Below are positions 21,483-29,795 of a DNA stretch of 64,000 nucleotides, one piece after another; position 1 is the stretch's first letter; each line of letters starts with the position of its first letter. This DNA is from Paraglaciecola sp. GTDB taxonomy: Bacteria > Pseudomonadota > Gammaproteobacteria > Enterobacterales > Alteromonadaceae. The notes beneath the pieces were generated by a model, which was given only the letters and a program-made list of their open reading frames with translations, ran no database searches and was not told the origin of the DNA. The position numbers and the translations under genes are program-made. The stretch covers positions 1 through 64,000 of the forward strand of contig JAACSL010000019.1 in the NCBI GenBank assembly GCA_009993955.1, given 5' to 3'.

Positions 21483-22943
21483 TCAATTGCCTAACATGGC
21501 GATTAGCGCTGAGCCCGTTTGATTAAGTTTTGCAACTGTCTGATCAAGCCCTAAATACTTATCACGCAATATTTGCTCATAACTCGACATTCTTAACTCA
21601 AATTGCTCTCGCTCATCTGCCAACAAATCTTTTTGATCTTTAACCGACCGTTCGCGACTGCTGAGTAAACCACTATACGAGGTATATTCTTTCAGATACT
21701 CGTAAAGCCGTTTGCCGATGCCTTGGTCTTCATCGGTAAATAATTTGGCAATTTCATCAAAATTATCTTCCAACGCACTTTTTAATCGGTCTTCACCGCT
21801 GCCAAATCCATATTTATCATTGGCACTAATTTCCAAGTCACCATCATCGTTGAATTCCAAACCCAGTTGGAAGATAGTGCCCAAAGAAGACCCGGATACA
21901 GCAGAACCGACAATGGAGGACAATCCTTGTTGAATACCACGGATCATAAAATCACCGGCTAAGGCACCATCGTCTTCTAATTCAGATAAACCGTATTTGG
22001 TTAAGGCGGTCATTTCTTTGTTTAGTGCATTGAAGTTGTCGACAAAATCACGGATTTTTTTATCAATACCTTCCGTGTCAAAGCCAATTTTCAAGGTTGA
22101 CTTTTTGAATGTTACGCCATCACCTTCCAACTCTGAGACCTCGGAAGCGGTAAAAGACACGTTGGCAATGGTATTTTTGAATTCGTTAGTTGAACTCTCA
22201 ACGTCAATACCATCAATTGATGCTTTGGCGTTTTGTGCAGACACTTTTGGGCTTAGGTAGGTAGCTGTTTCCGTAGAATCAGTGGTGGAGACACGATCTA
22301 ACTCAGCCAAGTTGTTATTGTTCACCACCACTAAATCTTTGCCGGCCCCAGTGATGGAAGAACTGAATACCAAGCGCGCGCCGCCATCTGCCGTACCGGT
22401 ATCAATAATACTTGATGTCACACCAAAATTATTGGCTGACGCATTGATTTTTGAACTCAACTGTTGAAGCGTCATGCCAGCCGTTACATTGATTGAAAAT
22501 GTATTGGTGGTGCTTGGGATCTTAAAAGTCAATGACCCCGAGCCTGAGCTCAACACGGTGGACGTTGAACTCGCAAATCCCCCATCAACCGCTTTGGCGG
22601 TTTCTATTCGACTACCACTTGCGAGCTGCGAAATAGCGATTTTATAACTGCCTTCCACCGCAGAATTAGCAGCCTCTGCGGTAAAGGGTTCAACACTTTC
22701 ACTTGGATTCTGGATAGTAGGCTCACGCCCACGCAATGCTGTATCACTGCGTAGTTCATCCACTGAATCGAGAAAATCTTTCATTTTCGATTTCAGTTTG
22801 CCAATACTTGATATCTCAGCATCAAAAGACGCATCCTTAGCATCGAGTCTATCTTGTTTTGGTTTACGCTCTGCACTAAGCAGTTGTGTCACCAAACTTT
22901 CAAGATCTAAACCTGACCCAACTCCAAGTGACTGAATTGACAT
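21483..22943 (-). CDS. fliD: Flagellar hook-associated protein 2 (filament cap)
   Basis: A 486-residue protein. The N-terminus (SLGVGSGLDLESLVTQLLSA) and the coiled-coil C-terminus (residues ~430-486, ending LNQTGSALIAMLGN) are typical of FliD, whose pentamer caps the growing filament. The middle part has the Ser/Thr-rich FliD domain. It is preceded by flaG and followed by fliS. Confidence 0.95.
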   Translation of the reverse strand: MSIQSLGVGSGLDLESLVTQLLSAERKPKQDRLDAKDASFDAEISSIGKLKSKMKDFLDSVDELRSDTALRGREPTIQNPSESVEPFTAEAANSAVEGSYKIAISQLASGSRIETAKAVDGGFASSTSTVLSSGSGSLTFKIPSTTNTFSINVTAGMTLQQLSSKINASANNFGVTSSIIDTGTADGGARLVFSSSITGAGKDLVVVNNNNLAELDRVSTTDSTETATYLSPKVSAQNAKASIDGIDVESSTNEFKNTIANVSFTASEVSELEGDGVTFKKSTLKIGFDTEGIDKKIRDFVDNFNALNKEMTALTKYGLSELEDDGALAGDFMIRGIQQGLSSIVGSAVSGSSLGTIFQLGLEFNDDGDLEISANDKYGFGSGEDRLKSALEDNFDEIAKLFTDEDQGIGKRLYEYLKEYTSYSGLLSSRERSVKDQKDLLADEREQFELRMSSYEQILRDKYLGLDQTVAKLNQTGSALIAMLGN

Positions 22944-22960
22944 TGGAAACCTCTCGCTAA

Positions 22961-23359
22961 CTAAACCTGTTTACTAAAAAGAATGCCTACAGTATTGCCT
23001 AATTCAGACTGTAGATCACGCAAACGTTCAGATAGTTTCAGCACCTCTTCGGTGGGAATCTGGCGAATAACTTCTCCGGATTCTGCATCAGTGACTTTGA
23101 CGACTGGACGTTCACTACTCTCATCAAAGGAGAAATTTAGCTGCCTGTTACTGGCCTTAGCAAACTCACTTAAGCCATCTACCGCTTGCTGAATGTCTGA
23201 CGTTGAAATCTTACTTTGAATCTTAGCAAGGTTATCGGCGTTTTCTGTTTTATCTTTAACGGTGTCTTGCTTTACGTTGTAGCTTAGGCCAATGACATCG
23301 CGTTCGGCGTACTTCGATACTGCAAGATTGTTACCACTTTGTGAGAAATTAATCTCCAT
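22961..23359 (-). CDS. flaG: FlaG family flagellar protein
   Basis: About 132 residues from the ATG at 23359 (MEINFSQSGN), chosen because a GGAGGTG ribosome binding site lies seven bases upstream. The second half, LNFSFDESSERPVVKVTDA followed by SGEVIRQIPTEEVLKLSERL, is the FlaG signature. FlaG limits filament length or affects flagellin incorporation in Vibrio and Campylobacter. It sits between flagellin 1 and fliD, the usual polar flagellar arrangement. Confidence 0.9.
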   Translation of the reverse strand: MEINFSQSGNNLAVSKYAERDVIGLSYNVKQDTVKDKTENADNLAKIQSKISTSDIQQAVDGLSEFAKASNRQLNFSFDESSERPVVKVTDAESGEVIRQIPTEEVLKLSERLRDLQSELGNTVGILFSKQV

Positions 23360-23436
23360 CTTACACCTCCACAAGGCAAAGAGTCAGCACTAAGCAACTA
23401 GCGCTAACCCTTTCAACCAATAAAATACGTTCAAAC

Positions 23437-24261
23437 TTAGCCCAGCAACGATAACGCAGCTTGTGGACGTTGGTTTGCCTGACTCAATACAGACAATGAT
23501 GCTTGCTGCACGATTTGATTTCGAGTCAACTCCGCCGTTTCTGCAGCGAAATCGGTATCCCGAATTTGCGAACGCGCCGCCGCAATATTTTCAGAAATAT
23601 TGCTCAAGTTACGGATCGTTGATTGGAAGCGGTTTTGCAAGGCACCCAAATCAGCACGTACCGCGCCGATGGTTGAAATAGCGGCATCGATGGTTGTTAA
23701 CGCGCCTGATGCGCCTGATGCAGTCGAAATATCAGCCGTACCTAAACTCAAACCAGACGTACCATAGCCACCCGTCTGATTCAGAGATATGGCAATCGTT
23801 TGCCCACCATTCGCACCCACAAGGAACGTGGCAGAAAAAGCTCCCGTTAAAATATCAGTCTTACCAAACTGAGTGTCAGAAGCAATACGCGATATTTCCA
23901 ATTTTAATGCCGACACTTCTTTTTGCAGAGCAGCACGGTCAGACGAAGAGTTGATACCGTTTTGCGATTGCACGGCAAGTACGCGAATACGCTGTAATGA
24001 CGCGGTAACTTCTGATAGTGCACCTTCTGCGGTTTGTGACAGTGAAATGGCATCATTGGCATTTCTAACGGCTTGATTAAGCCCTTGTACTTGAGTAGTC
24101 AACCGATCTGAAATTTGTAAGCCAGCAGCATCATCAGCAGCGCGGTTTATGCGAAAACCAGATGAAAGTCTTTCAAACGACGTGCTAAGTGCTTGCCCAG
24201 AATTAAATAACTGACGCTGTGCATTCAACGACGACACGTTAGTGTTTACATATAAGCCCAT
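23437..24261 (-). CDS. Flagellin 1 (class A)
   Basis: A 274-residue flagellin beginning MGLYVNTNVSSLNAQRQLFN and ending SQANQRPQAALSLLG. Only the conserved D0 and D1 regions are present, with a short central segment. It forms the filament and is exported by the flagellar type III system. It resembles flagellin 4 more than flagellins 2 and 3 (MGL start, AALSLLG end). A sigma-28 promoter lies at 24438-24464, and the ~170-base leader contains three hairpins. The ribosome binding site is CAGGAGGT. Confidence 0.97.
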   Translation of the reverse strand: MGLYVNTNVSSLNAQRQLFNSGQALSTSFERLSSGFRINRAADDAAGLQISDRLTTQVQGLNQAVRNANDAISLSQTAEGALSEVTASLQRIRVLAVQSQNGINSSSDRAALQKEVSALKLEISRIASDTQFGKTDILTGAFSATFLVGANGGQTIAISLNQTGGYGTSGLSLGTADISTASGASGALTTIDAAISTIGAVRADLGALQNRFQSTIRNLSNISENIAAARSQIRDTDFAAETAELTRNQIVQQASLSVLSQANQRPQAALSLLG

Positions 24262-24329
24262 AAATAACCTCCTGAAAACTTATCTCTAGCAATGATCACT
24301 AGACTACTTGATAAGTTTGCCTCAATTTC

Positions 24330-24430
24330 AATGTTAAACAGGCCTCCCCGTTTAACACCGCCTCACTTCATTTCAGTTTGGTACCTCTACCCTACTGAAC
24401 ACTAAAAGCAATCACTTGGAATGCCCCTCA
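24330..24430 (-). promoter_or_regulatory. Structured 5' leader of flagellin 1
   Basis: On the minus strand the untranslated leader between the sigma-28 promoter and the start codon holds a GTTAAAC/GTTTAAC hairpin with the loop GGGGAGGCCT and a TTCAGT/ACTGAA hairpin with a loop that contains AGGGTAGAGG. A third AACTTATC/GATAAGTT pair lies nearer the start codon. G-rich, GGA-bearing loops are the type of site bound by CsrA/RsmA; this is a suggestion, not a demonstration. Confidence 0.45.
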
Positions 24431-24437
24431 ACTAAAG

Positions 24438-24464
24438 CTATCGGCAGAAACTTTACGACCTTTA
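24438..24464 (-). promoter_or_regulatory. Sigma-28 (FliA) promoter of flagellin 1
   Basis: On the minus strand TAAAGGTC is followed by 11 bases and GCCGATAG. This matches the FliA consensus TAAAGTTT-N11-GCCGATAA in both boxes and spacing. It lies about 175 bases upstream of the flagellin 1 start. Confidence 0.85.
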
Positions 24465-24571
24465 ATTTTTTTTGAAATATTTTTCAATTTTTTTAGCAAG
24501 GCTATTTGGCTTTGTAAAAATGAAGTGCTCTAGCGCATATTGCTAAATAAAAAATGACACCATCAATAAAG

Positions 24572-24587
24572 TGGCACACAACATGCT
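24572..24587 (+). promoter_or_regulatory. Sigma-54-like promoter on the plus strand, before stem-loop copy 1
   Basis: TGGCACACAACATGCT has GG and GC exactly 12 bases apart and matches the -24 box fully and the -12 box in ATGCT. It points along the plus strand, opposite to the flagellins, and the stem-loop at 24634-24708 begins about 49 bases after its -12 box. No coding gene lies downstream on this strand, so it would drive a noncoding RNA. Confidence 0.4.
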
Positions 24588-24597
24588 AAATCGTTTG

Positions 24598-24722
24598 GGC
24601 ATTCACACAGCAAATGAATGCAAAAGAGTTTCTGTCCGACTGGCAAGGTTAGAGATGAATACTGGCCTCTCAACCAAACTTCTACACTCTCAGTCTTGTC
24701 GGTTGGACGTTTTATTATTCCC
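24598..24722 (+). ncRNA. Candidate small RNA: stem-loop copy 1 of the flagellin intergenic family
   Basis: The segment 24634-24708 folds into a 14-bp stem (GTCCGACTGGCAAG against CTTGTCGGTTGGAC). Read as plus-strand RNA all 14 positions pair, with three G-U pairs; read as minus-strand RNA those three would be A-C mismatches. The stem is followed by GTTTTATTATT on the plus strand. The 35-base loop segment at 24662-24696 is identical to that in copy 2. Ends are guessed from the promoter-like element and the T-rich tail. Strand and existence need experimental support. Confidence 0.4.
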
Positions 24723-24791
24723 TCATTCGTATGGGCAATAAATAAGAAAAATATATGCGAGCTAGGTAATGCCTCTGCACGACGCATAAAT

Positions 24792-24820
24792 AAAAAAGGC
24801 CCGGGCAAAAGACCCGAGCC
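24792..24820 (-). terminator. Rho-independent terminator, minus strand
   Basis: Read on the minus strand, GGCTCGGGT and GCCCGGGCC pair around a short loop, with a U-G pair that favours this strand, and are followed by six T. The hairpin at 24824-24848 stands immediately before it. No coding gene ends nearby (flagellin 2 already has a terminator at 25003-25030), so it may end a separate noncoding transcript. Confidence 0.7.
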
Positions 24821-24823
24821 AAC

Positions 24824-24848
24824 TTGCTCACGTTAGGAGATGGAGCAA
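24824..24848 (-). ncRNA. Terminator-linked hairpin with an anti-Shine-Dalgarno loop, copy b
   Basis: On the minus strand TTGCTC and GAGCAA close a 13-base loop CATCTCCTAACGT. The loop is complementary to CGTTAGGAGA at the flagellin 3 ribosome binding site (10 bases) and to GTTAGGAGA at that of flagellin 2 (9 bases). The copy at 25034-25058 has the same stem and nearly the same loop. Both stand directly before a terminator, a typical layout for the 3' part of a small RNA. Confidence 0.4.
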
Positions 24849-24858
24849 AGACGGTTTC

Positions 24859-24935
24859 TGTTCAACTAGTAAGGCAGGGCGTAAATTCTGGCCTCTCAAC
24901 CAAACTTCTACACTCTCAGTCTGGCTAGTTGAACA
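24859..24935 (+). repeat. Stem-loop copy 2 of the flagellin intergenic family
   Basis: An 11-bp perfect stem (TGTTCAACTAG with CTAGTTGAACA) encloses the same 35-base loop segment (24888-24922) as copy 1, while the stem sequence differs on both arms. Paired changes with a conserved loop point to selection for structure. On the plus strand the stem is followed by TTTTATAC. Only a weak sigma-54-like element (24752-24770) is seen before it on the plus strand; on the minus strand TATAAAAT precedes it. Confidence 0.6.
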
Positions 24936-25002
24936 TTTTATACAGCATCAGTGCCACCGAAGCACTTTGCTAAATTATAGACGATTGCATGTAACGTGCT
25001 GG

Positions 25003-25030
25003 AAAAAAGGCCGGGGCATGGACCCCGACC
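25003..25030 (-). terminator. Rho-independent terminator after flagellin 2
   Basis: Minus strand: GGTCGGGG pairs with CCCCGGCC and is followed by six T. It lies about 200 bases after the flagellin 2 stop codon, giving that message a long structured 3' untranslated region. Confidence 0.75.
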
Positions 25031-25033
25031 AAC

Positions 25034-25058
25034 TTGCTCACGTTAGGAGAACGAGCAA
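25034..25058 (-). ncRNA. Terminator-linked hairpin with an anti-Shine-Dalgarno loop, copy a (flagellin 2 3' UTR)
   Basis: On the minus strand TTGCTC and GAGCAA enclose GTTCTCCTAACGT. The loop can pair with CGTTAGGAGAA before flagellin 3 (11 bases), GTTAGGAGAA before flagellin 2 (10 bases) and TAGGAGAAC before flagellin 4 (9 bases), in each case covering the Shine-Dalgarno core. It lies in the predicted 3' UTR of flagellin 2, just before its terminator. A 3'-UTR-derived regulatory RNA is an inference. Confidence 0.4.
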
Positions 25059-25060
25059 CC

Positions 25061-25232
25061 GGTCTACCTACCAGGGACGATGACGATGTGTGTTAGTTTT
25101 GTCATTACACATCATTGTTGTCCTTGCTAGTAAAATTCGTATTGGTAAAGTTGCCTTCCATGGCAGATCTAAACGAATCGCCCTATTCGTCGCTCGGGTG
25201 GCCTCTCATTTCCTACCCTCTGTAAATCAAAC
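25061..25232. other. Structured intergenic segment downstream of flagellin 2
   Basis: No gene is seen. The segment 25075-25123 forms a long imperfect stem (GGACGATGACGATGTGT arm on the plus strand, opposed to ACACATCATTGTTGTCC) whose changes are mostly G-U pairs on the plus strand. At 25200-25222 a GGCCTCTCA...CCCTCTG stretch resembles the loop of stem-loop copies 1 and 2 in degenerate form. Confidence 0.35.
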
Positions 25233-26060
25233 TTAACCCAATAAACTTAATGCTGACTGGGGGCGCTGATTTGCTTGCCCTAACACCGTAATACTGGCTT
25301 GCTGAATAATCTGCCAACGGGTTAACTCTGCCGTCTCGACGGCAAAATCTGTATCACGTATGCGGCTTCTTGCCGCCGAGACGTTTTCAGAGATATTACT
25401 CAAGTTTCGAATTGTCGATTGAAAACGGTTTTGTATCGCACCTAAATCCGCCCGTTTTGCATCAATGATTGAGATAGCCTCGGATACTTGAGTCATGGCT
25501 CGGGATGCACTGGCAACACTAGCTACACTCACGTTGACCCCAGCAAAGATACCGGATGTACCGTAACCACCTAGCCTTGAGATATTGATACTGATAGTTT
25601 GCCCAGCATTGGCCCCAACAAGGAAAGCCGATGAATAACTTCCGTCTAAAATATTCACACCACCAAACTGCGTGGTAGACGCAATACGACTAATTTCCTG
25701 CTTCAGAGCCGACACTTCTTTTTGCAGGGCAAGGCGGTCGGAAGAACTATTAATCCCATTTTGCGCTTGCACTGCTAGTACCCTGATTCGCTGCAACGCC
25801 GTGGTTATTTCACCCATCGCCCCCTCTGCAGTTTGCGATAATGAAATTCCGTCGTTGGCATTGCGCACGGCCATGTTCAAACCTAATACTTGTGAGGTAA
25901 GTCGGTTGGAAATTTGCAAGCCTGCTGCGTCATCTTTGGCACTGTTGATCCTAAATCCTGACGATAAGCGCTCAAACGCCGTATTTAAATTGCCGTTTGA
26001 GGTAAATAATTGCCGCGTTGCATTCAACGACGAGACGTTAGTACTGACATATAAACTCAT
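25233..26060 (-). CDS. Flagellin 2 (class B)
   Basis: A 275-residue flagellin starting MSLYVSTNVSSLNATRQLFT and ending QANQRPQSALSLLG. It pairs with flagellin 3: both have SAKDDAAGLQISN, RWQIIQQASITVLG and the TSQVLGL or TSQILGL segment. Only D0/D1 is present. The ribosome binding site reads GTTAGGAGAA, seven bases before ATG. I see no good sigma-28 promoter upstream. The leader holds a GCTAAC/GTTAGC hairpin near 26165-26190. Confidence 0.97.
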   Translation of the reverse strand: MSLYVSTNVSSLNATRQLFTSNGNLNTAFERLSSGFRINSAKDDAAGLQISNRLTSQVLGLNMAVRNANDGISLSQTAEGAMGEITTALQRIRVLAVQAQNGINSSSDRLALQKEVSALKQEISRIASTTQFGGVNILDGSYSSAFLVGANAGQTISINISRLGGYGTSGIFAGVNVSVASVASASRAMTQVSEAISIIDAKRADLGAIQNRFQSTIRNLSNISENVSAARSRIRDTDFAVETAELTRWQIIQQASITVLGQANQRPQSALSLLG

Positions 26061-26136
26061 GATAATTCTCCTAACCTGCCACCAACTTCTTGTTTTTATT
26101 GAACTGTCGGTGTTACTGGTATAAACAAAGTTAAAA

Positions 26137-26155
26137 TTGGCACATTACGTGCTTT
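26137..26155 (+). promoter_or_regulatory. Sigma-54-like promoter on the plus strand between flagellins 2 and 3
   Basis: TTGGCACATTACGTGCTTT fits YTGGCAC-N5-TTGCW with GG and GC 12 bases apart; only one base of the -12 box differs. It points away from flagellin 2 toward stem-loop copy 3 and a plus-strand terminator, with no coding gene between. It is very similar in sequence to the element at 24572-24587 (both TGGCACA...TGCT). Confidence 0.45.
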
Positions 26156-26164
26156 AGTATCTTT

Positions 26165-26468
26165 GCTAACTGGTACCCTGGTTAGCGCTTTGTTAAGTGT
26201 TTAACGTGCACAAACAAATGCAAAAAGTGCGAGCGTAAGCTCAAGCTGACAGACAGGACTGATGGCCTAAACCTCAATACCTCACTACCTCCTGGCGTCT
26301 TTTCTGTCTGTTAGCTATTTACCCAAAACGGCGCAAGCCCTAGGTAAAACAGAGTAAACCGCCAGCTATTTGCAAGCCTCTGTCATGTTAATGTTGCTTA
26401 ATAAAGGTCTCATCCCTCGGTCGATTGCAGCCTGCCCCCACATTTTGCAACTCGACCGTTCTTTTTTT
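26165..26468 (+). ncRNA. Candidate plus-strand small RNA with stem-loop copy 3, antisense to the flagellin 3 message end
   Basis: Three parts line up on the plus strand: the sigma-54-like element at 26137-26155, stem-loop copy 3 (26245-26315, GCTGACAGACAG paired to CTGTCTGTTAGC with one G-U pair) and a terminator (26418-26468). The loop contains ACTACCTCCTGGC, whose ACCTCCTG is complementary to CAGGAGGT at the flagellin 1 ribosome binding site. No reading frame of note lies inside. The RNA would run antisense to the 3' untranslated part of flagellin 3. Ends are predicted only. Confidence 0.4.
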
Positions 26469-26497
26469 CACCCTCGATAACTACGCAGCCTGCCCCC
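26414..26497. repeat. Imperfect tandem repeat with GCAGCCTGCCCCC
   Basis: GCAGCCTGCCCCC occurs at 26427-26439 and again at 26485-26497. Each copy follows a CCCTCG (26414-26419 and 26471-26476), giving a period of about 57 bases. The first copy lies in the loop of the plus-strand terminator. Function unknown; it may reflect a local duplication. Confidence 0.5.
26418..26468 (+). terminator. Rho-independent terminator, plus strand
   Basis: CGGTCGA at 26418-26424 pairs with TCGACCG at 26452-26458 and is followed by TTCTTTTTTT. The T run is on the plus strand only, yet no plus-strand gene precedes it, so it supports a noncoding plus-strand transcript. Confidence 0.55.
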
Positions 26498-26538
26498 GCA
26501 ATTGCGCTAAGTCATTCTTGTTATTGATGCTCATAGGC

Positions 26539-27369
26539 TTAACCTTGCAGTAATGAAAGCGCAGATTGAGGCCGTTGATTAGCCTGCCCCAATACCGTAA
26601 TACTGGCTTGCTGAATGATCTGCCAGCGCGTCAACTCAGCCGTTTCGATAGCAAAATCTGTATCGCGAATACGGCTGCGTGCTGCCGATACGTTTTCGGA
26701 AATATTACTTAAGTTACGAATGGTAGATTGAAAGCGGTTTTGAATCGCACCCAAGTCGGCACGTTTAGCGTCGATGATGGAAATGGCTTCCAGCACCTGA
26801 GTCAGAGCCCGGGACGCATCGGCAACGGTTTCTACCGATAAACTTGCGCCACCCAATAAACCAGAGGCGCCGTACCCGGAAACCCGAGAAATATTGATGC
26901 TGATGGTTTGCCCGGCATTGGCCCCCACCAAAAAGGCAGACGAATAAGTACCCGCCAAGATATTGACGCCACCAAATTGCGTGGTTTGAGCGATACGACT
27001 GATTTCTTGTTTTAGAGCCGACACTTCTTTTTGCAGCGCCAAACGATCTGCAGGTCCATTGATACCGTTTTGTGCTTGTACAGCTAAGACACGAATACGT
27101 TGCAAAGAAGTGGTGATTTCTCCCATGGCGCCTTCCGCCGTTTGTGACAGTGAAATACCATCATTGGCATTTCGTACAGCCATATCTAAGCCAAGGATCT
27201 GGGAGGTTAAGCGGTTTGAAATCTGCAAGCCTGCGGCGTCGTCTTTCGCGCTGTTAATGCGAAAGCCAGAAGACAAACGCTCGAAAGCGGTACTAAGGTT
27301 GTTGTTCGACGTGAATAATTGACGGGTAGCATTCAACGACGAGACATTCGTGCTAACGAATAAACTCAT
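26539..27369 (-). CDS. Flagellin 3 (class B)
   Basis: A 276-residue flagellin beginning MSLFVSTNVSSLNATRQLFT and ending QSALSLLQG, one residue longer than its relatives at the C-terminus. It is a close paralogue of flagellin 2. The ribosome binding site is CGTTAGGAGAA, the best match to the anti-Shine-Dalgarno loops at 24824-24848 and 25034-25058. A sigma-28-like sequence with one extra spacer base lies near 27526-27553. Confidence 0.97.
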   Translation of the reverse strand: MSLFVSTNVSSLNATRQLFTSNNNLSTAFERLSSGFRINSAKDDAAGLQISNRLTSQILGLDMAVRNANDGISLSQTAEGAMGEITTSLQRIRVLAVQAQNGINGPADRLALQKEVSALKQEISRIAQTTQFGGVNILAGTYSSAFLVGANAGQTISINISRVSGYGASGLLGGASLSVETVADASRALTQVLEAISIIDAKRADLGAIQNRFQSTIRNLSNISENVSAARSRIRDTDFAIETAELTRWQIIQQASITVLGQANQRPQSALSLLQG

Positions 27370-27525
27370 TTTCTTTCTCCTAACGATTTTATTGAAGCGC
27401 CGTCAGACTATTATTTTTATTGGCTGTCTTAACGGTTACAGGATCGTATTATTAGTATTATCTGATCGCTGCTACAACGTTCGCCTATTGATTTTATTAG
27501 TGGCGTAACGTCTATGCTTATGTAT

Positions 27526-27553
27526 CGTAGCTTTGTGAAAAAAGCTTTAGAGA
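27526..27553 (-). promoter_or_regulatory. Possible sigma-28 promoter of flagellin 3
   Basis: On the minus strand TAAAGCTT is followed after 12 bases by TACGATAC. The boxes resemble the FliA consensus but the spacer is one base too long and the -10 box lacks GC, so the call is weak. It lies about 160 bases upstream of the start codon. Confidence 0.4.
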
Positions 27554-27603
27554 AAAAAATAAAAAAATAAAAACATGAACAAATTCATGAATTTATTTGG
27601 GAG

Positions 27604-27640
27604 GTTAGCAGTCAGGTTTTACCCTGACTGCTAGCTTTTT
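27604..27640 (+). terminator. Terminator-like hairpin between flagellins 3 and 4
   Basis: AGCAGTCAGG and CCTGACTGCT form a 10-bp perfect stem around a short loop, followed by CTAGCTTTTT on the plus strand. On the minus strand, downstream of flagellin 4, no T run follows directly. It may end a plus-strand transcript or serve as a 3' stabilising hairpin for flagellin 4. Confidence 0.5.
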
Positions 27641-27668
27641 CGATTGAGAGATTGAGCAATACTCTCAA

Positions 27669-27724
27669 CTATTTGGCTTCTCAATACCCCAGTTACTACC
27701 TCCTGGCATCTCACCACCAAATAG
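27669..27724. repeat. Stem-loop copy 4 of the flagellin intergenic family
   Basis: CTATTTGG pairs with CCAAATAG around a loop that contains ACTACCTCCTGGC, a 13-base segment shared with copy 3. It lies 36 bases after the flagellin 4 stop codon. No sigma-54-like element is seen before it on the plus strand, so it may instead belong to the flagellin 4 message. Confidence 0.5.
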
Positions 27725-27760
27725 AAGATGGGTCTTTATGCAAAGGTCAACTTACTAGAC

Positions 27761-28585
27761 TTAGCCTAATAACGACAAGGCGGCCTGAGGACGCTGATTG
27801 GCCTGACTTAACACCGTTAAGCTAGCCTGTTGAATAATCTGGTTACGTGTCAACTCTGCGGTTTCAACGGCGAAATCAGTGTCGCGGATTTGTGAACGCG
27901 CTGCGGCTACGTTTTCAGAGATGTTGCTCAAGTTACGGATGGTTGACTGGAAGCGGTTTTGTAACGCACCCAGGTCAGCACGGGTTCCGCCAATCGATGA
28001 GATAGCTGCATCGATAGCGGTTAATGCCGCAGATGCACCTGATTCAGTCGAGATATCGGTGGTACCCAGACTCAACCCAGAAGCACCAAAACCACCGGTT
28101 TGATTCAGGGCAACAGCGATGGTTTGTCCACCGTTGGCACCAACCAGGAAGGTCGCTGAAAACGCGCCGGTTAAGATATCGGTTTTACCAAACTGTGTAT
28201 CAGTGGCGATACGTGATATTTCAAGTTTCAGGGCAGACACTTCTTTTTGCAGGGCAGCACGGTCAGCAGAGCTGTTGATACCGTTTTGTGACTGCACAGC
28301 TAGTACACGAATACGTTGTAATGAAGTGGTTACCTCTGACAATGCGCCTTCAGCGGTCTGAGTTAACGAAATCGCGTCATTGGCGTTACGCACGGCTTGG
28401 TTTAAGCCTTGTACTTGTGTGGTTAAACGGTCGGTAATTTGCAGACCTGCTGCATCATCGGCCGCTCTGTTGATTCGAAAGCCTGATGACAAGCGTTCAA
28501 AAGAAGTATTCAAGCTCACGCCTGAATTGAAAAGTTGACGCTGCGCGCTTAATGACGAAACGTTGGTGTTGACAAATAAACCCAT
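27761..28585 (-). CDS. Flagellin 4 (class A)
   Basis: A 274-residue flagellin starting MGLFVNTNVSSLSAQRQLFN and ending QANQRPQAALSLLG, closely related to flagellin 1 over its whole length. It has a full sigma-28 promoter at 28722-28748. The sequence just before its start, GACTGAGAGTGTAGGAG, holds the ribosome binding site and is complementary to the loop of stem-loop copies 1 and 2. The leader also has a TAATGATT/AATCATTA and an ACCAAA/TTTGGT hairpin. Confidence 0.97.
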   Translation of the reverse strand: MGLFVNTNVSSLSAQRQLFNSGVSLNTSFERLSSGFRINRAADDAAGLQITDRLTTQVQGLNQAVRNANDAISLTQTAEGALSEVTTSLQRIRVLAVQSQNGINSSADRAALQKEVSALKLEISRIATDTQFGKTDILTGAFSATFLVGANGGQTIAVALNQTGGFGASGLSLGTTDISTESGASAALTAIDAAISSIGGTRADLGALQNRFQSTIRNLSNISENVAAARSQIRDTDFAVETAELTRNQIIQQASLTVLSQANQRPQAALSLLG

Positions 28586-28721
28586 GGTTGTTCTCCTACA
28601 CTCTCAGTCCAGCTTTCACTGGCGACCAAATCGAAATTTGGTTGGTTAAATAACACTAATAGAATAATGATTGCTCTAAGATGGTCTTAAAAAATCATTA
28701 CTACTGGCTCTCTCGGAAAAT

Positions 28722-28748
28722 GTATCGACCCAGAAAAAATTCCCTTTA
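28722..28748 (-). promoter_or_regulatory. Sigma-28 (FliA) promoter of flagellin 4
   Basis: Minus strand: TAAAGGGA, 11 bases, GTCGATAC. Spacing is exact and the -10 box differs from GCCGATAA at two positions. It lies about 140 bases upstream of the start codon. Confidence 0.75.
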
Positions 28749-28850
28749 ACAAAATTTTGCCGTAATTTACGAAAACGGCAAAAGACTGCCGCCACCACAG
28801 CAATATTTGAATGCTTTTCAATGATTTAACCCATGAAGAAAATTTGATCA

Positions 28851-29795
28851 ATGCACATACTCTGGCTTAAAAAAATCGCCTATCAGGGCCAACATAGCGC
28901 CTTCACCGATCTTTGTTTGTATCGGCAGCACCTATTCGGCTGTTTTCGTCGAGCACTAAATCATGTGAGCCATGACGGCGTAATTTGTATTTTTAAAAGC
29001 GATCTTGCGGGTAATACCAAGCTTGTTTCACGCATCACACTGTATGGCTGTGATATTCGCGACCCCAAGTTGAGCGTGCGCCCCGATGGCAAATTAATGC
29101 TCATCGCCTACGTTAACTTTTATGATGAAAAAGATAGATTGAGCAGTGGGCGGAATCTATGTTGGGTTTCGCAAGATGGCTTAAGTTGGTCTAGTCCAAG
29201 GCAGTTTGGCGAAGTCTTTTGGTGGTTGTGGCGAGTACGCTGGCAGCATAAACAAGCGTATGGTTTTGCCTATAACCGCGGTGCCAATGCGGTAGATTGG
29301 TATGCGGGAGATCCTCTACGCACCTTCAATAAATTAACACCCCGCGCTTTTTGTTTGCATAAACACGGAAAGGCCTACCCAAATGAGTCAGATATTGTCT
29401 TTGATCAACAGCATTGTTTTGCCCTATTGCGACGTGATGCAGATAGTTATTCAGCGCAATTGGGCTGCAGTCGTCAACCCTACAAACAATGGCAATGGCG
29501 AGATTTAGGTGTGTATATTGGCGGGCCTGTTATGCAATTACTCACCGACGATGTGGCTATAGTAGCGGGAAGGATAATTCATCAACAACAACTCAGAACG
29601 GCGGTGTTTACTCTGCAACTTTCCCAGGCAACACTCAGTGAACCGTTGTTACTTCCCTCTGCAGGTGACAATAGCTATCCTGGATTGGTGATCACCGAAA
29701 CTGCTATTTATTTGAGTTACTATTCCAGTCATGAAGATAACAAAAGCGCCATTTACTTAACTAAAATTGCGCGACCTACTTTACCTTCAACCTAA
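28851..29795 (+). CDS. Sialidase-fold (beta-propeller) protein of unknown function
   Basis: A 314-residue protein on the plus strand between two minus-strand flagellar blocks. WVSQDGLSWSSPRQFG contains an Asp-box (SxDGxxW), the hairpin signature of sialidase-type propellers, and ITLYGCDIRDPKLSVRPDGK resembles the start of a propeller blade as in sialidases or GH43/GH32-like folds. There is no signal peptide or membrane segment. The catalytic Arg triad and Tyr/Glu pair of true sialidases cannot be confirmed by eye. Its neighbours suggest a possible link to the nonulosonic acid on flagellin. The stop overlaps the flgL stop by 4 bases. Confidence 0.6.
   Translation: MHILWLKKIAYQGQHSAFTDLCLYRQHLFGCFRRALNHVSHDGVICIFKSDLAGNTKLVSRITLYGCDIRDPKLSVRPDGKLMLIAYVNFYDEKDRLSSGRNLCWVSQDGLSWSSPRQFGEVFWWLWRVRWQHKQAYGFAYNRGANAVDWYAGDPLRTFNKLTPRAFCLHKHGKAYPNESDIVFDQQHCFALLRRDADSYSAQLGCSRQPYKQWQWRDLGVYIGGPVMQLLTDDVAIVAGRIIHQQQLRTAVFTLQLSQATLSEPLLLPSAGDNSYPGLVITETAIYLSYYSSHEDNKSAIYLTKIARPTLPST

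What the first reader, a model, noticed from the sequence alone, without database searches (positions are those of the whole stretch)
24572..28609. Stem-loop family with a loop antisense to the flagellin 4 ribosome binding site
Copies 1 and 2 (24634-24708, 24859-24935) share a 35-base loop. On the plus strand it contains CTTCTACACTCTCAGTC, which can pair with the flagellin 4 leader GACTGAGAGTGTAGGAG over 17 bases with one G-U pair, covering the Shine-Dalgarno GGAG. The stems differ between copies but stay paired, so structure seems conserved. This could be a trans-acting RNA that shuts flagellin 4 while others are made. An alternative is that the copies are relics of duplicated flagellin leaders.
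Basis: partly seen in the sequence, partly recalled or inferred. Interest (0 to 1): 0.85.

Follow-up and report, generated by a model that had tools for sequence, protein, structure and literature searches.

The report
Paired small RNAs beside flagellin genes
Marine bacteria of the Alteromonas family appear to encode two related small RNAs beside their flagellin genes whose loops match flagellin messages, probably to time how the parts of the swimming filament are made.

Summary
The two copies are tandem copies of a structured RNA (RNA A) on the plus strand. Its hairpin covaries across Alteromonadaceae, and a sigma-54 promoter motif lies upstream in 78 of 86 genomes. The loop pairs with the flagellin 4 leader over the Shine-Dalgarno. 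Where the leader has changed, the loop has usually changed to match (four pairs in Alteromonas sp. a30). This supports pairing in trans rather than relic leaders.

A paralogue, RNA B (26164 onward), has a sigma-54 motif in 77 of 78 genomes. Its loop is the complement of a 13-14 nt site behind the flagellin 4 stop codon. RNA A's apical loop is the complement of a site behind flagellin 2. The likely mechanism: RNA A blocks translation of flagellin 4, which has a sigma-28-type promoter, while the 3'UTR sites bind or titrate A and B.

No Rfam family reached its threshold, and seven literature searches showed no description. Models of A and B hit flagellin loci only in this family here. Expression and the sign of regulation are untested.

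The parts
24572..24587 (+). sigma-54 promoter motif of RNA A, TGGCACACAACATGCT; predicted start about 24598
   Evidence: Sequence; strict motif in 78 of 86 genomes 90-300 nt upstream of the first core, same strand
24598..24720 (+). RNA A copy 1: 5' hairpin, long-loop hairpin, U-rich tail (ends predicted)
   Evidence: Fold z -3.90 for 24597-24720; R1 hit 24621-24715, 92.8 bits (this copy is in the model)
24633..24709 (+). core hairpin of copy 1 with the anti-flagellin 4 loop
24859..24935 (+). RNA A copy 2 core hairpin (no separate sigma-54 site seen; may be co-transcribed with copy 1)
   Evidence: R1 hit 24847-24940, 70.0 bits (not in the model); fold
28593..28609 (-). target of RNA A: flagellin 4 leader GACTGAGAGTGTAGGAG, covering the Shine-Dalgarno
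   Evidence: Compensatory loop/leader changes; duplex -34.2 kcal/mol
28723..28748 (-). sigma-28-type promoter motif of flagellin 4
   Evidence: Found in the window; 47 of 51 genes with this leader type have such a site
24439..24464 (-). sigma-28-type promoter motif of flagellin 1
   Evidence: Found in the window; 56 of 57 genes with the fla1 leader type
25196..25218 (-). site D: flagellin 2 3'UTR hairpin with UGAGAGGCCA, complementary to the RNA A apical loop UGGCCUCUCA
   Evidence: TGAGAGGCC behind a flagellin stop in 55 of 87 genomes, flagellin strand only; A-D duplex median z -3.05; the hairpin itself is weak, z -0.95
26138..26153 (+). sigma-54 promoter motif of RNA B; predicted start about 26164
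   Evidence: Strict motif in 77 of 78 genomes
26244..26316 (+). RNA B core hairpin with loop CACUACCUCCUGGC
   Evidence: Fold z -5.38 for 26228-26320; covariation; R2 hit 26227-26327 (in the model)
27669..27724 (-). site C: flagellin 4 3'UTR stretch with GCCAGGAGGUAGU, complementary to the RNA B loop
   Evidence: Motif behind a flagellin stop in 58 of 99 genomes; B with the window's fla4 3'UTR -53.6 kcal/mol; B-C median z -4.77; follows the flagellin strand when the arrangement is inverted
24823..24848 (-). hairpin with loop UCUCCUAACG before a terminator; complementary to fla3/fla2 leader CGUUAGGAGA (role uncertain)
   Evidence: duplex energy not exceptional
25033..25058 (-). second copy of that hairpin, in the flagellin 2 3' end

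Best explanation
RNA A is a trans-acting small RNA made from its own sigma-54 promoter. It presents a long pyrimidine-rich loop on a covarying stem. The 3' half of the loop pairs over about 17 nt with the leader of flagellin 4, covering its Shine-Dalgarno, and so should block translation of that gene, which has a sigma-28-type promoter. Its paralogue RNA B, also behind a sigma-54 motif, pairs with a complementary site just behind the flagellin 4 stop codon, and RNA A's apical loop pairs with a similar site behind flagellin 2. Supported by comparison here: RNA strand, stems, promoter motifs, A-fla4 pairing, complementarity and orientation of the 3'UTR sites. Inferred: transcription, use of RpoN, repression, and the 3'UTR sites acting as decoys or anchors.
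For: A stem: 70 sequences, 99.0% of cells paired, 6 of 12 pairs with double changes, 0 of 500 shuffles as high. B stem and its small 5' hairpin: 73 sequences, 92.7% paired, 14 of 17 pairs with double changes. Plus strand favoured: -15.2 against -3.2 for A, -18.2 against -2.5 for B. Sigma-54: in 800 kb of 87 loci, 155 of 157 strict plus-strand sites belong to A or B; the other strand has 2. Trans covariation: 76 genomes; 16 have leaders changed at positions 1-6; pairing there 98.3% against a shuffled mean of 93.7%, 0 of 10,000. Sigma-28-type sites precede 47 of 51 fla4-type and 56 of 57 fla1-type genes, but 0 of 54 fla3-type. Site specificity: A with D z -3.05, A with C -0.28; B with C -4.77, B with D -1.06.
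Against: No expression data. The loop/leader shuffle test ignores relatedness; the tree-based pair test found only 2 supported pairs per position and cannot reach significance, though none went the opposite way. Cells that do not pair at leader positions 1-6: L104 (two), L110, L037, L121; further in: L056/L062/L109 (position 13) and L086 (position 15); at position 18 the loop has A opposite G in 16 of 78 entries. The C and D classes were defined by the motif, so their energies are partly circular, and the window's C stretch (27675-27745) does not fold better than shuffles, z 0.23. B with the fla1 5'UTR is not beyond shuffled expectation: median z -0.77, 11 of 42 below -2. Eight of 86 genomes lack the strict sigma-54 motif at A. 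On its own, window copy 2 folds better on the minus strand (z -5.08) than on the plus strand (z -4.01).
Confidence: 0.8

Rival explanations
1. The hairpins are relics of duplicated flagellin leaders on the minus strand, with no function of their own; gene conversion keeps them similar.
For: On the minus strand the core matches the fla4 leader at 16 of 17 positions (sequence).
Against: Stem pairs that are G-U on the plus strand would be A-C on the minus strand. The Shine-Dalgarno position differs from the leader in 78 of 78 entries, so it is not being homogenised. A sigma-54 motif points into it.
Confidence: 0.04
2. The functional RNA is on the minus strand: the 3'UTR of flagellin 2 or a separate RNA carrying a flagellin 4 leader mimic, acting as a sponge and ending at the T6 terminator.
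For: Strong minus-strand terminators at 25030-25009 and 24820-24798; copy 2 on the minus strand folds at z -5.08.
Against: The conserved stem is disrupted on the minus strand across relatives. The terminators can serve the flagellin 2 message. The promoter scans made (sigma-70, sigma-54, sigma-28) show no minus-strand site beside the window's copies.
Confidence: 0.08
3. A and B act through a protein such as CsrA rather than by base-pairing; AGGAG hairpins upstream of A would be the binding sites.
For: Many A units have an AGGAG hairpin on the plus strand; Csr-type RNAs are very abundant in Alteromonas (PMC5864184, section 15 read). 32 of 70 A cores hold at least one A(N)GGA.
Against: Window copy 1 has no AGGAG hairpin. 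38 of 70 A cores and 61 of 73 B cores hold no A(N)GGA, and only 1 and 1 hold two or more. Loop and leader co-change.
Confidence: 0.05
4. A and B are real base-pairing RNAs but activate or stabilise flagellin messages instead of repressing them.
For: Both also match 3'UTR sites, where pairing could protect messages.
Against: A pairs directly across the Shine-Dalgarno GGAG of fla4.
Confidence: 0.12

Closest known systems
Campylobacter jejuni FlmE (CJnc230) and FlmR (CJnc170) (PMC11187230; abstract, outline and passages seen)
   Same: Two sRNAs tied to the flagellar hierarchy; FlmE depends on RpoN and represses translation of its targets.
   Different: FlmE is processed from flgE mRNA and targets flgM and Cj1387c; in what I saw, no pairing with a flagellin Shine-Dalgarno and no flagellin 3'UTR partner sites are described.
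Escherichia coli MotR, FliX, UhpU, FlgO (PMC10578931; passages seen)
   Same: Flagellar-regulon sRNAs; three pair with flagellin mRNA.
   Different: sigma-28-dependent and UTR-derived; the pairing with fliC is inside the coding sequence. Here the promoter motifs are sigma-54 type, the genes stand alone, and the site is the Shine-Dalgarno.
CsrB/C-like Aln1a-c of Alteromonas macleodii (PMC5864184; section 15 and passages seen)
   Same: Neighbouring sRNAs in the same family of bacteria.
   Different: Frequent A(N)GGA motifs proposed to bind CsrA; no antisense loop described in what I saw; they lie between Te101_04650 and Te101_04655.
Rfam RF02278 Betaproteobacteria toxic sRNA / RF02837 anti-hemB
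   Same: Weak hits (22 bits) to the minus-strand hairpin plus terminator.
   Different: Far below gathering scores of 50 and 49.5; not on RNA A or B.

Membership tests
trans-acting base-pairing sRNA | own promoter | tested here: met
   Conserved sigma-54 motif upstream of A and B; rpoN gene present. This is a motif; transcription was not tested
trans-acting base-pairing sRNA | conserved RNA structure on a defined strand | tested here: met
trans-acting base-pairing sRNA | complementarity to a target that co-varies with it | tested here: met
   A with fla4 leader; the phylogenetic pair test lacked power. For B no co-variation was shown
trans-acting base-pairing sRNA | expressed and changes target expression | not testable with these tools
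   No RNA-seq or reporter data available
any Rfam 15 family | score at or above gathering threshold | tested here: not met
   Seven matches up to E 5 in 22900-29000, all below gathering
Csr/Rsm-type sRNA | multiple A(N)GGA motifs | tested here: not met
   Two or more in 1 of 70 A cores and 1 of 73 B cores; full-length RNAs were not defined
cis-antisense RNA of fla4 | target encoded on the opposite strand of the same stretch | tested here: not met
   The fla4 leader is about 3.9 kb from RNA A. Read-through of A into the fla2 3' end was not tested. For B, its promoter and loop persist where flagellins lie on its own strand

The most novel reading that the evidence does not exclude
The two sRNAs and their 3'UTR partner sites form a relay that sets the order of flagellins in the filament. 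Flagellin 2 message titrates RNA A and so releases flagellin 4; flagellin 4 message, through site C, titrates RNA B and so releases a last flagellin, possibly flagellin 1, whose Shine-Dalgarno CAGGAGGU matches the B loop ACCUCCUG. The last link is weak.
Probability: 0.25. Interest if true: 0.92.

Novelty: new variant of a known kind. Interest (0 to 1): 0.82.

Why it matters
Many polar-flagellated bacteria carry several flagellins, and how their order and ratio are set is poorly understood (recalled). If this reading is right, Alteromonadaceae use a dedicated pair of sigma-54-class RNAs to hold back translation of sigma-28-class flagellins, with flagellin messages themselves binding the RNAs. 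It is directly testable in cultivable marine strains and adds an RNA layer to the flagellar hierarchy.

Tried and rejected
I first read the core as a minus-strand sRNA ending at the T6 terminator, because of terminators and the fold of copy 2. Stem covariation and the promoter motif reversed this.

The minus-strand hairpin UCUCCUAACG as an antisense of the fla3/fla2 leaders: complementary over 9-10 nt, but its duplex energies (-18.6, -18.9) are not the best in the window (best -22.6). I leave it open.

RNA B with the fla1 5'UTR: conserved GAGG motifs looked promising, but shuffles do not support it.

A weak R1 hit in G415 (E 0.009) has no flagellin or sigma-54 site beside it and is taken as chance. 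In one search some B complements were counted as 3'UTR sites; one search sorts B first and replaces it. The B set holds at least one site-C stretch (L088_3828); the alignment A2 used later takes one B per genome.

The tree-based sign test was run and had no power. Literature: seven searches listed no paper whose title or abstract start describes these RNAs; the cap on supplementary files was 0, so those of the A. macleodii transcriptome paper were not tried.
Full report
What is there. The window holds four flagellin genes on the minus strand: fla1 23437-24261, fla2 25233-26060, fla3 26539-27369, fla4 27761-28585 (named flagellins from their sequence, by recall). The window's genus group holds contigs that match Paraglaciecola records by length, so the host is probably a Paraglaciecola; this is an inference. 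Similar DNA is present in 23 of 60 genomes, the window's own included. A pattern scan of named genomes gave 81 stretches; 80 carry titles of Alteromonadaceae in NCBI's ranks and one is named only Gammaproteobacteria.

Strand. From 113 cores, 80 distinct sequences without N were aligned (locus L123 not yet included). The plus strand forms an 11-bp stem with G-U, A-U and G-C alternating, at -15.2 kcal/mol; the minus strand gives -3.2. With 70 sequences, one per genome, 99.0% of 832 cells are paired, 6 of 12 pairs have changes on both sides, and no shuffle (0 of 500) matched. The last 10 nt, after the stem, hold TTT in 67 of 70 rows.

Promoter. A strict sigma-54 motif, TGGCA[CT]N6TGC[AT], occurs 157 times on the plus strand and 2 times on the minus strand in 800,270 bases from 87 loci. 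Of the 157, 155 lie 90-300 nt upstream of RNA A (78 of 86 first cores; one more core was too near a contig end) or RNA B (77 of 78). The eight misses at A are L046, L066, L067, L073, L077, L082, L090 and L095. The genome encodes RpoN and Hfq.

Leader positions 1-5 were fixed by no search pattern and position 6 only loosely, so they are a fair test; the loop's GGCCTCTCAACC and TTCTAYACTCT were fixed by the scan, so their invariance is no evidence. Sixteen genomes differ from the consensus leader at positions 1-6. Matched changes include Alteromonas sp. a30 (GGGUCAAGAG with CUCUUGACCC), Planctobacterium (GGAUCG with CGAUCC), Aestuariibacter salexigens (A-U to G-C) and a group of eight with Alteromonas oceani (C-G to U-A), with a U-G pair at that place in three others. 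Alteromonas ponticola and A. aquimaris have a further rearranged leader, GGUUGAGAGUUGUAG, with loop CUCUCAACC; they are not in the statistic. Pairing is 98.3% against a shuffled mean of 93.7%, 0 of 10,000; on 23 distinct combinations 96.4% against 90.6%, 0 of 10,000. These shuffles ignore relatedness; the tree test had too few pairs. Against: unpaired cells in L104 (two), L110, L037 and L121 at positions 1-6, in L056/L062/L109 and L086 further in, and a G-A at position 18 in 16 of 78 entries. The Shine-Dalgarno G pairs with U in 78 of 78 entries, a fixed difference from the leader that argues against gene conversion.

RNA B. Between fla2 and fla3 a second long-loop hairpin lies on the plus strand behind its own sigma-54 motif. 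In 73 sequences 92.7% of cells are paired and 14 of 17 pairs show double changes. The A and B models find each other weakly on the same strand in several of 10 sources, so they are probably paralogues. In 295 family genomes the A model matches 75 (19 of 52 genera), one of them (G415) judged chance, and the B model 85 (21 of 52). In 394 genomes of the order the A model matches 14, all of the same family, G415 and the window's genome among them; B was not run on the order. Nine B-only loci were read: in eight the flagellins found lie on the same strand as B, in one none was found; a sigma-54 site precedes B by pattern in 4 of 9, and by eye (GG-N10-GC) in the others.

3'UTR partner sites. The motif CCAGG[AG]GGTAG lies 16-88 nt behind a flagellin stop in 58 of 99 genomes. 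The full 14-mer GCCAGGAGGUAGUG is there in 35 of these 58, 45 if A or G is allowed at the variable place, and its complement CACUACCUCCUGGC is in 75 of 78 B loops. The window's own site is 13 nt, and B with its fla4 3'UTR gives -53.6 kcal/mol. In 10 of 58 an A-to-G change keeps a G-U pair. In five inverted arrangements the site still reads in the flagellin sense, so it belongs to the message. Site D, UGAGAGGCC, lies behind a flagellin stop in 55 of 87 genomes; all 171 occurrences of that 9-mer (99 the complement of RNA A itself, 56 behind a stop, 16 elsewhere) are on the flagellin strand. Energies are specific: A-D median z -3.05 (48 of 59 below -2), A-C -0.28 (6 of 59); B-C -4.77 (55 of 59), B-D -1.06 (5 of 55); 3'UTRs with neither site -0.37 and -0.17 (14 of 152, 16 of 143). 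The classes were defined by motif, so this is partly circular, and the window's own C and D stretches do not fold better than shuffles.

Regulatory class. Sigma-28-type sites stand before 47 of 51 fla4-type and 56 of 57 fla1-type genes, 10 of 46 fla2-type, 0 of 54 fla3-type and 19 of 32 others (types set by leader motif). RNA A (sigma-54 motif) therefore meets a sigma-28-type target. A with the fla4 5'UTR: z below -2 in 41 of 42; A with fla1: 1 of 42; B with fla4: 6 of 42; B with fla1: 11 of 42.

Mechanism. RNA A most likely occludes the fla4 Shine-Dalgarno. Sites C and D may act as decoys or anchors. Expression, sign and order are inferred.

Known systems. Flagellar sRNAs of Campylobacter and E. 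coli are the nearest in role but differ in promoter, origin and site. No Rfam family reached its threshold.

Noticed in passing
26427-26503 (+): Two copies of GCAGCCTGCCCCC[AG]CA in the fla3-fla2 spacer; the first sits in a CGGTCG/CGACCG hairpin followed by a T run on the plus strand, seen also in several relatives, perhaps the 3' end of RNA B.
   Followed up: partly
24823-24848 and 25033-25058 (-): Hairpin with loop UCUCCUAACG before strong terminators; similar hairpins occur at the fla4 3' end in relatives. Complementary to the fla3/fla2 leader CGUUAGGAGA.
   Followed up: partly
28703-28714 (-), fla4 5'UTR near its predicted start: GAGAGAGCCAGT is present in 47 of 48 fla4 5'UTRs and is complementary, with one bulge, to the RNA A apical loop ACUGGCCUCUC.
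   Followed up: partly
24424-24431 (-), fla1 5'UTR: TTGAG[AG]GG occurs in 40 of 56 fla1-type 5'UTRs; partner unknown.
   Followed up: partly
26165-26186 (+): The predicted 5' hairpin of RNA B has the self-complementary stretch GGUACC in its loop, seen in most Paraglaciecola-group loci printed.
   Followed up: no
L104, L108: Three tandem copies of RNA A in an Alteromonadaceae MAG and in Planctobacterium marinum.
   Followed up: no
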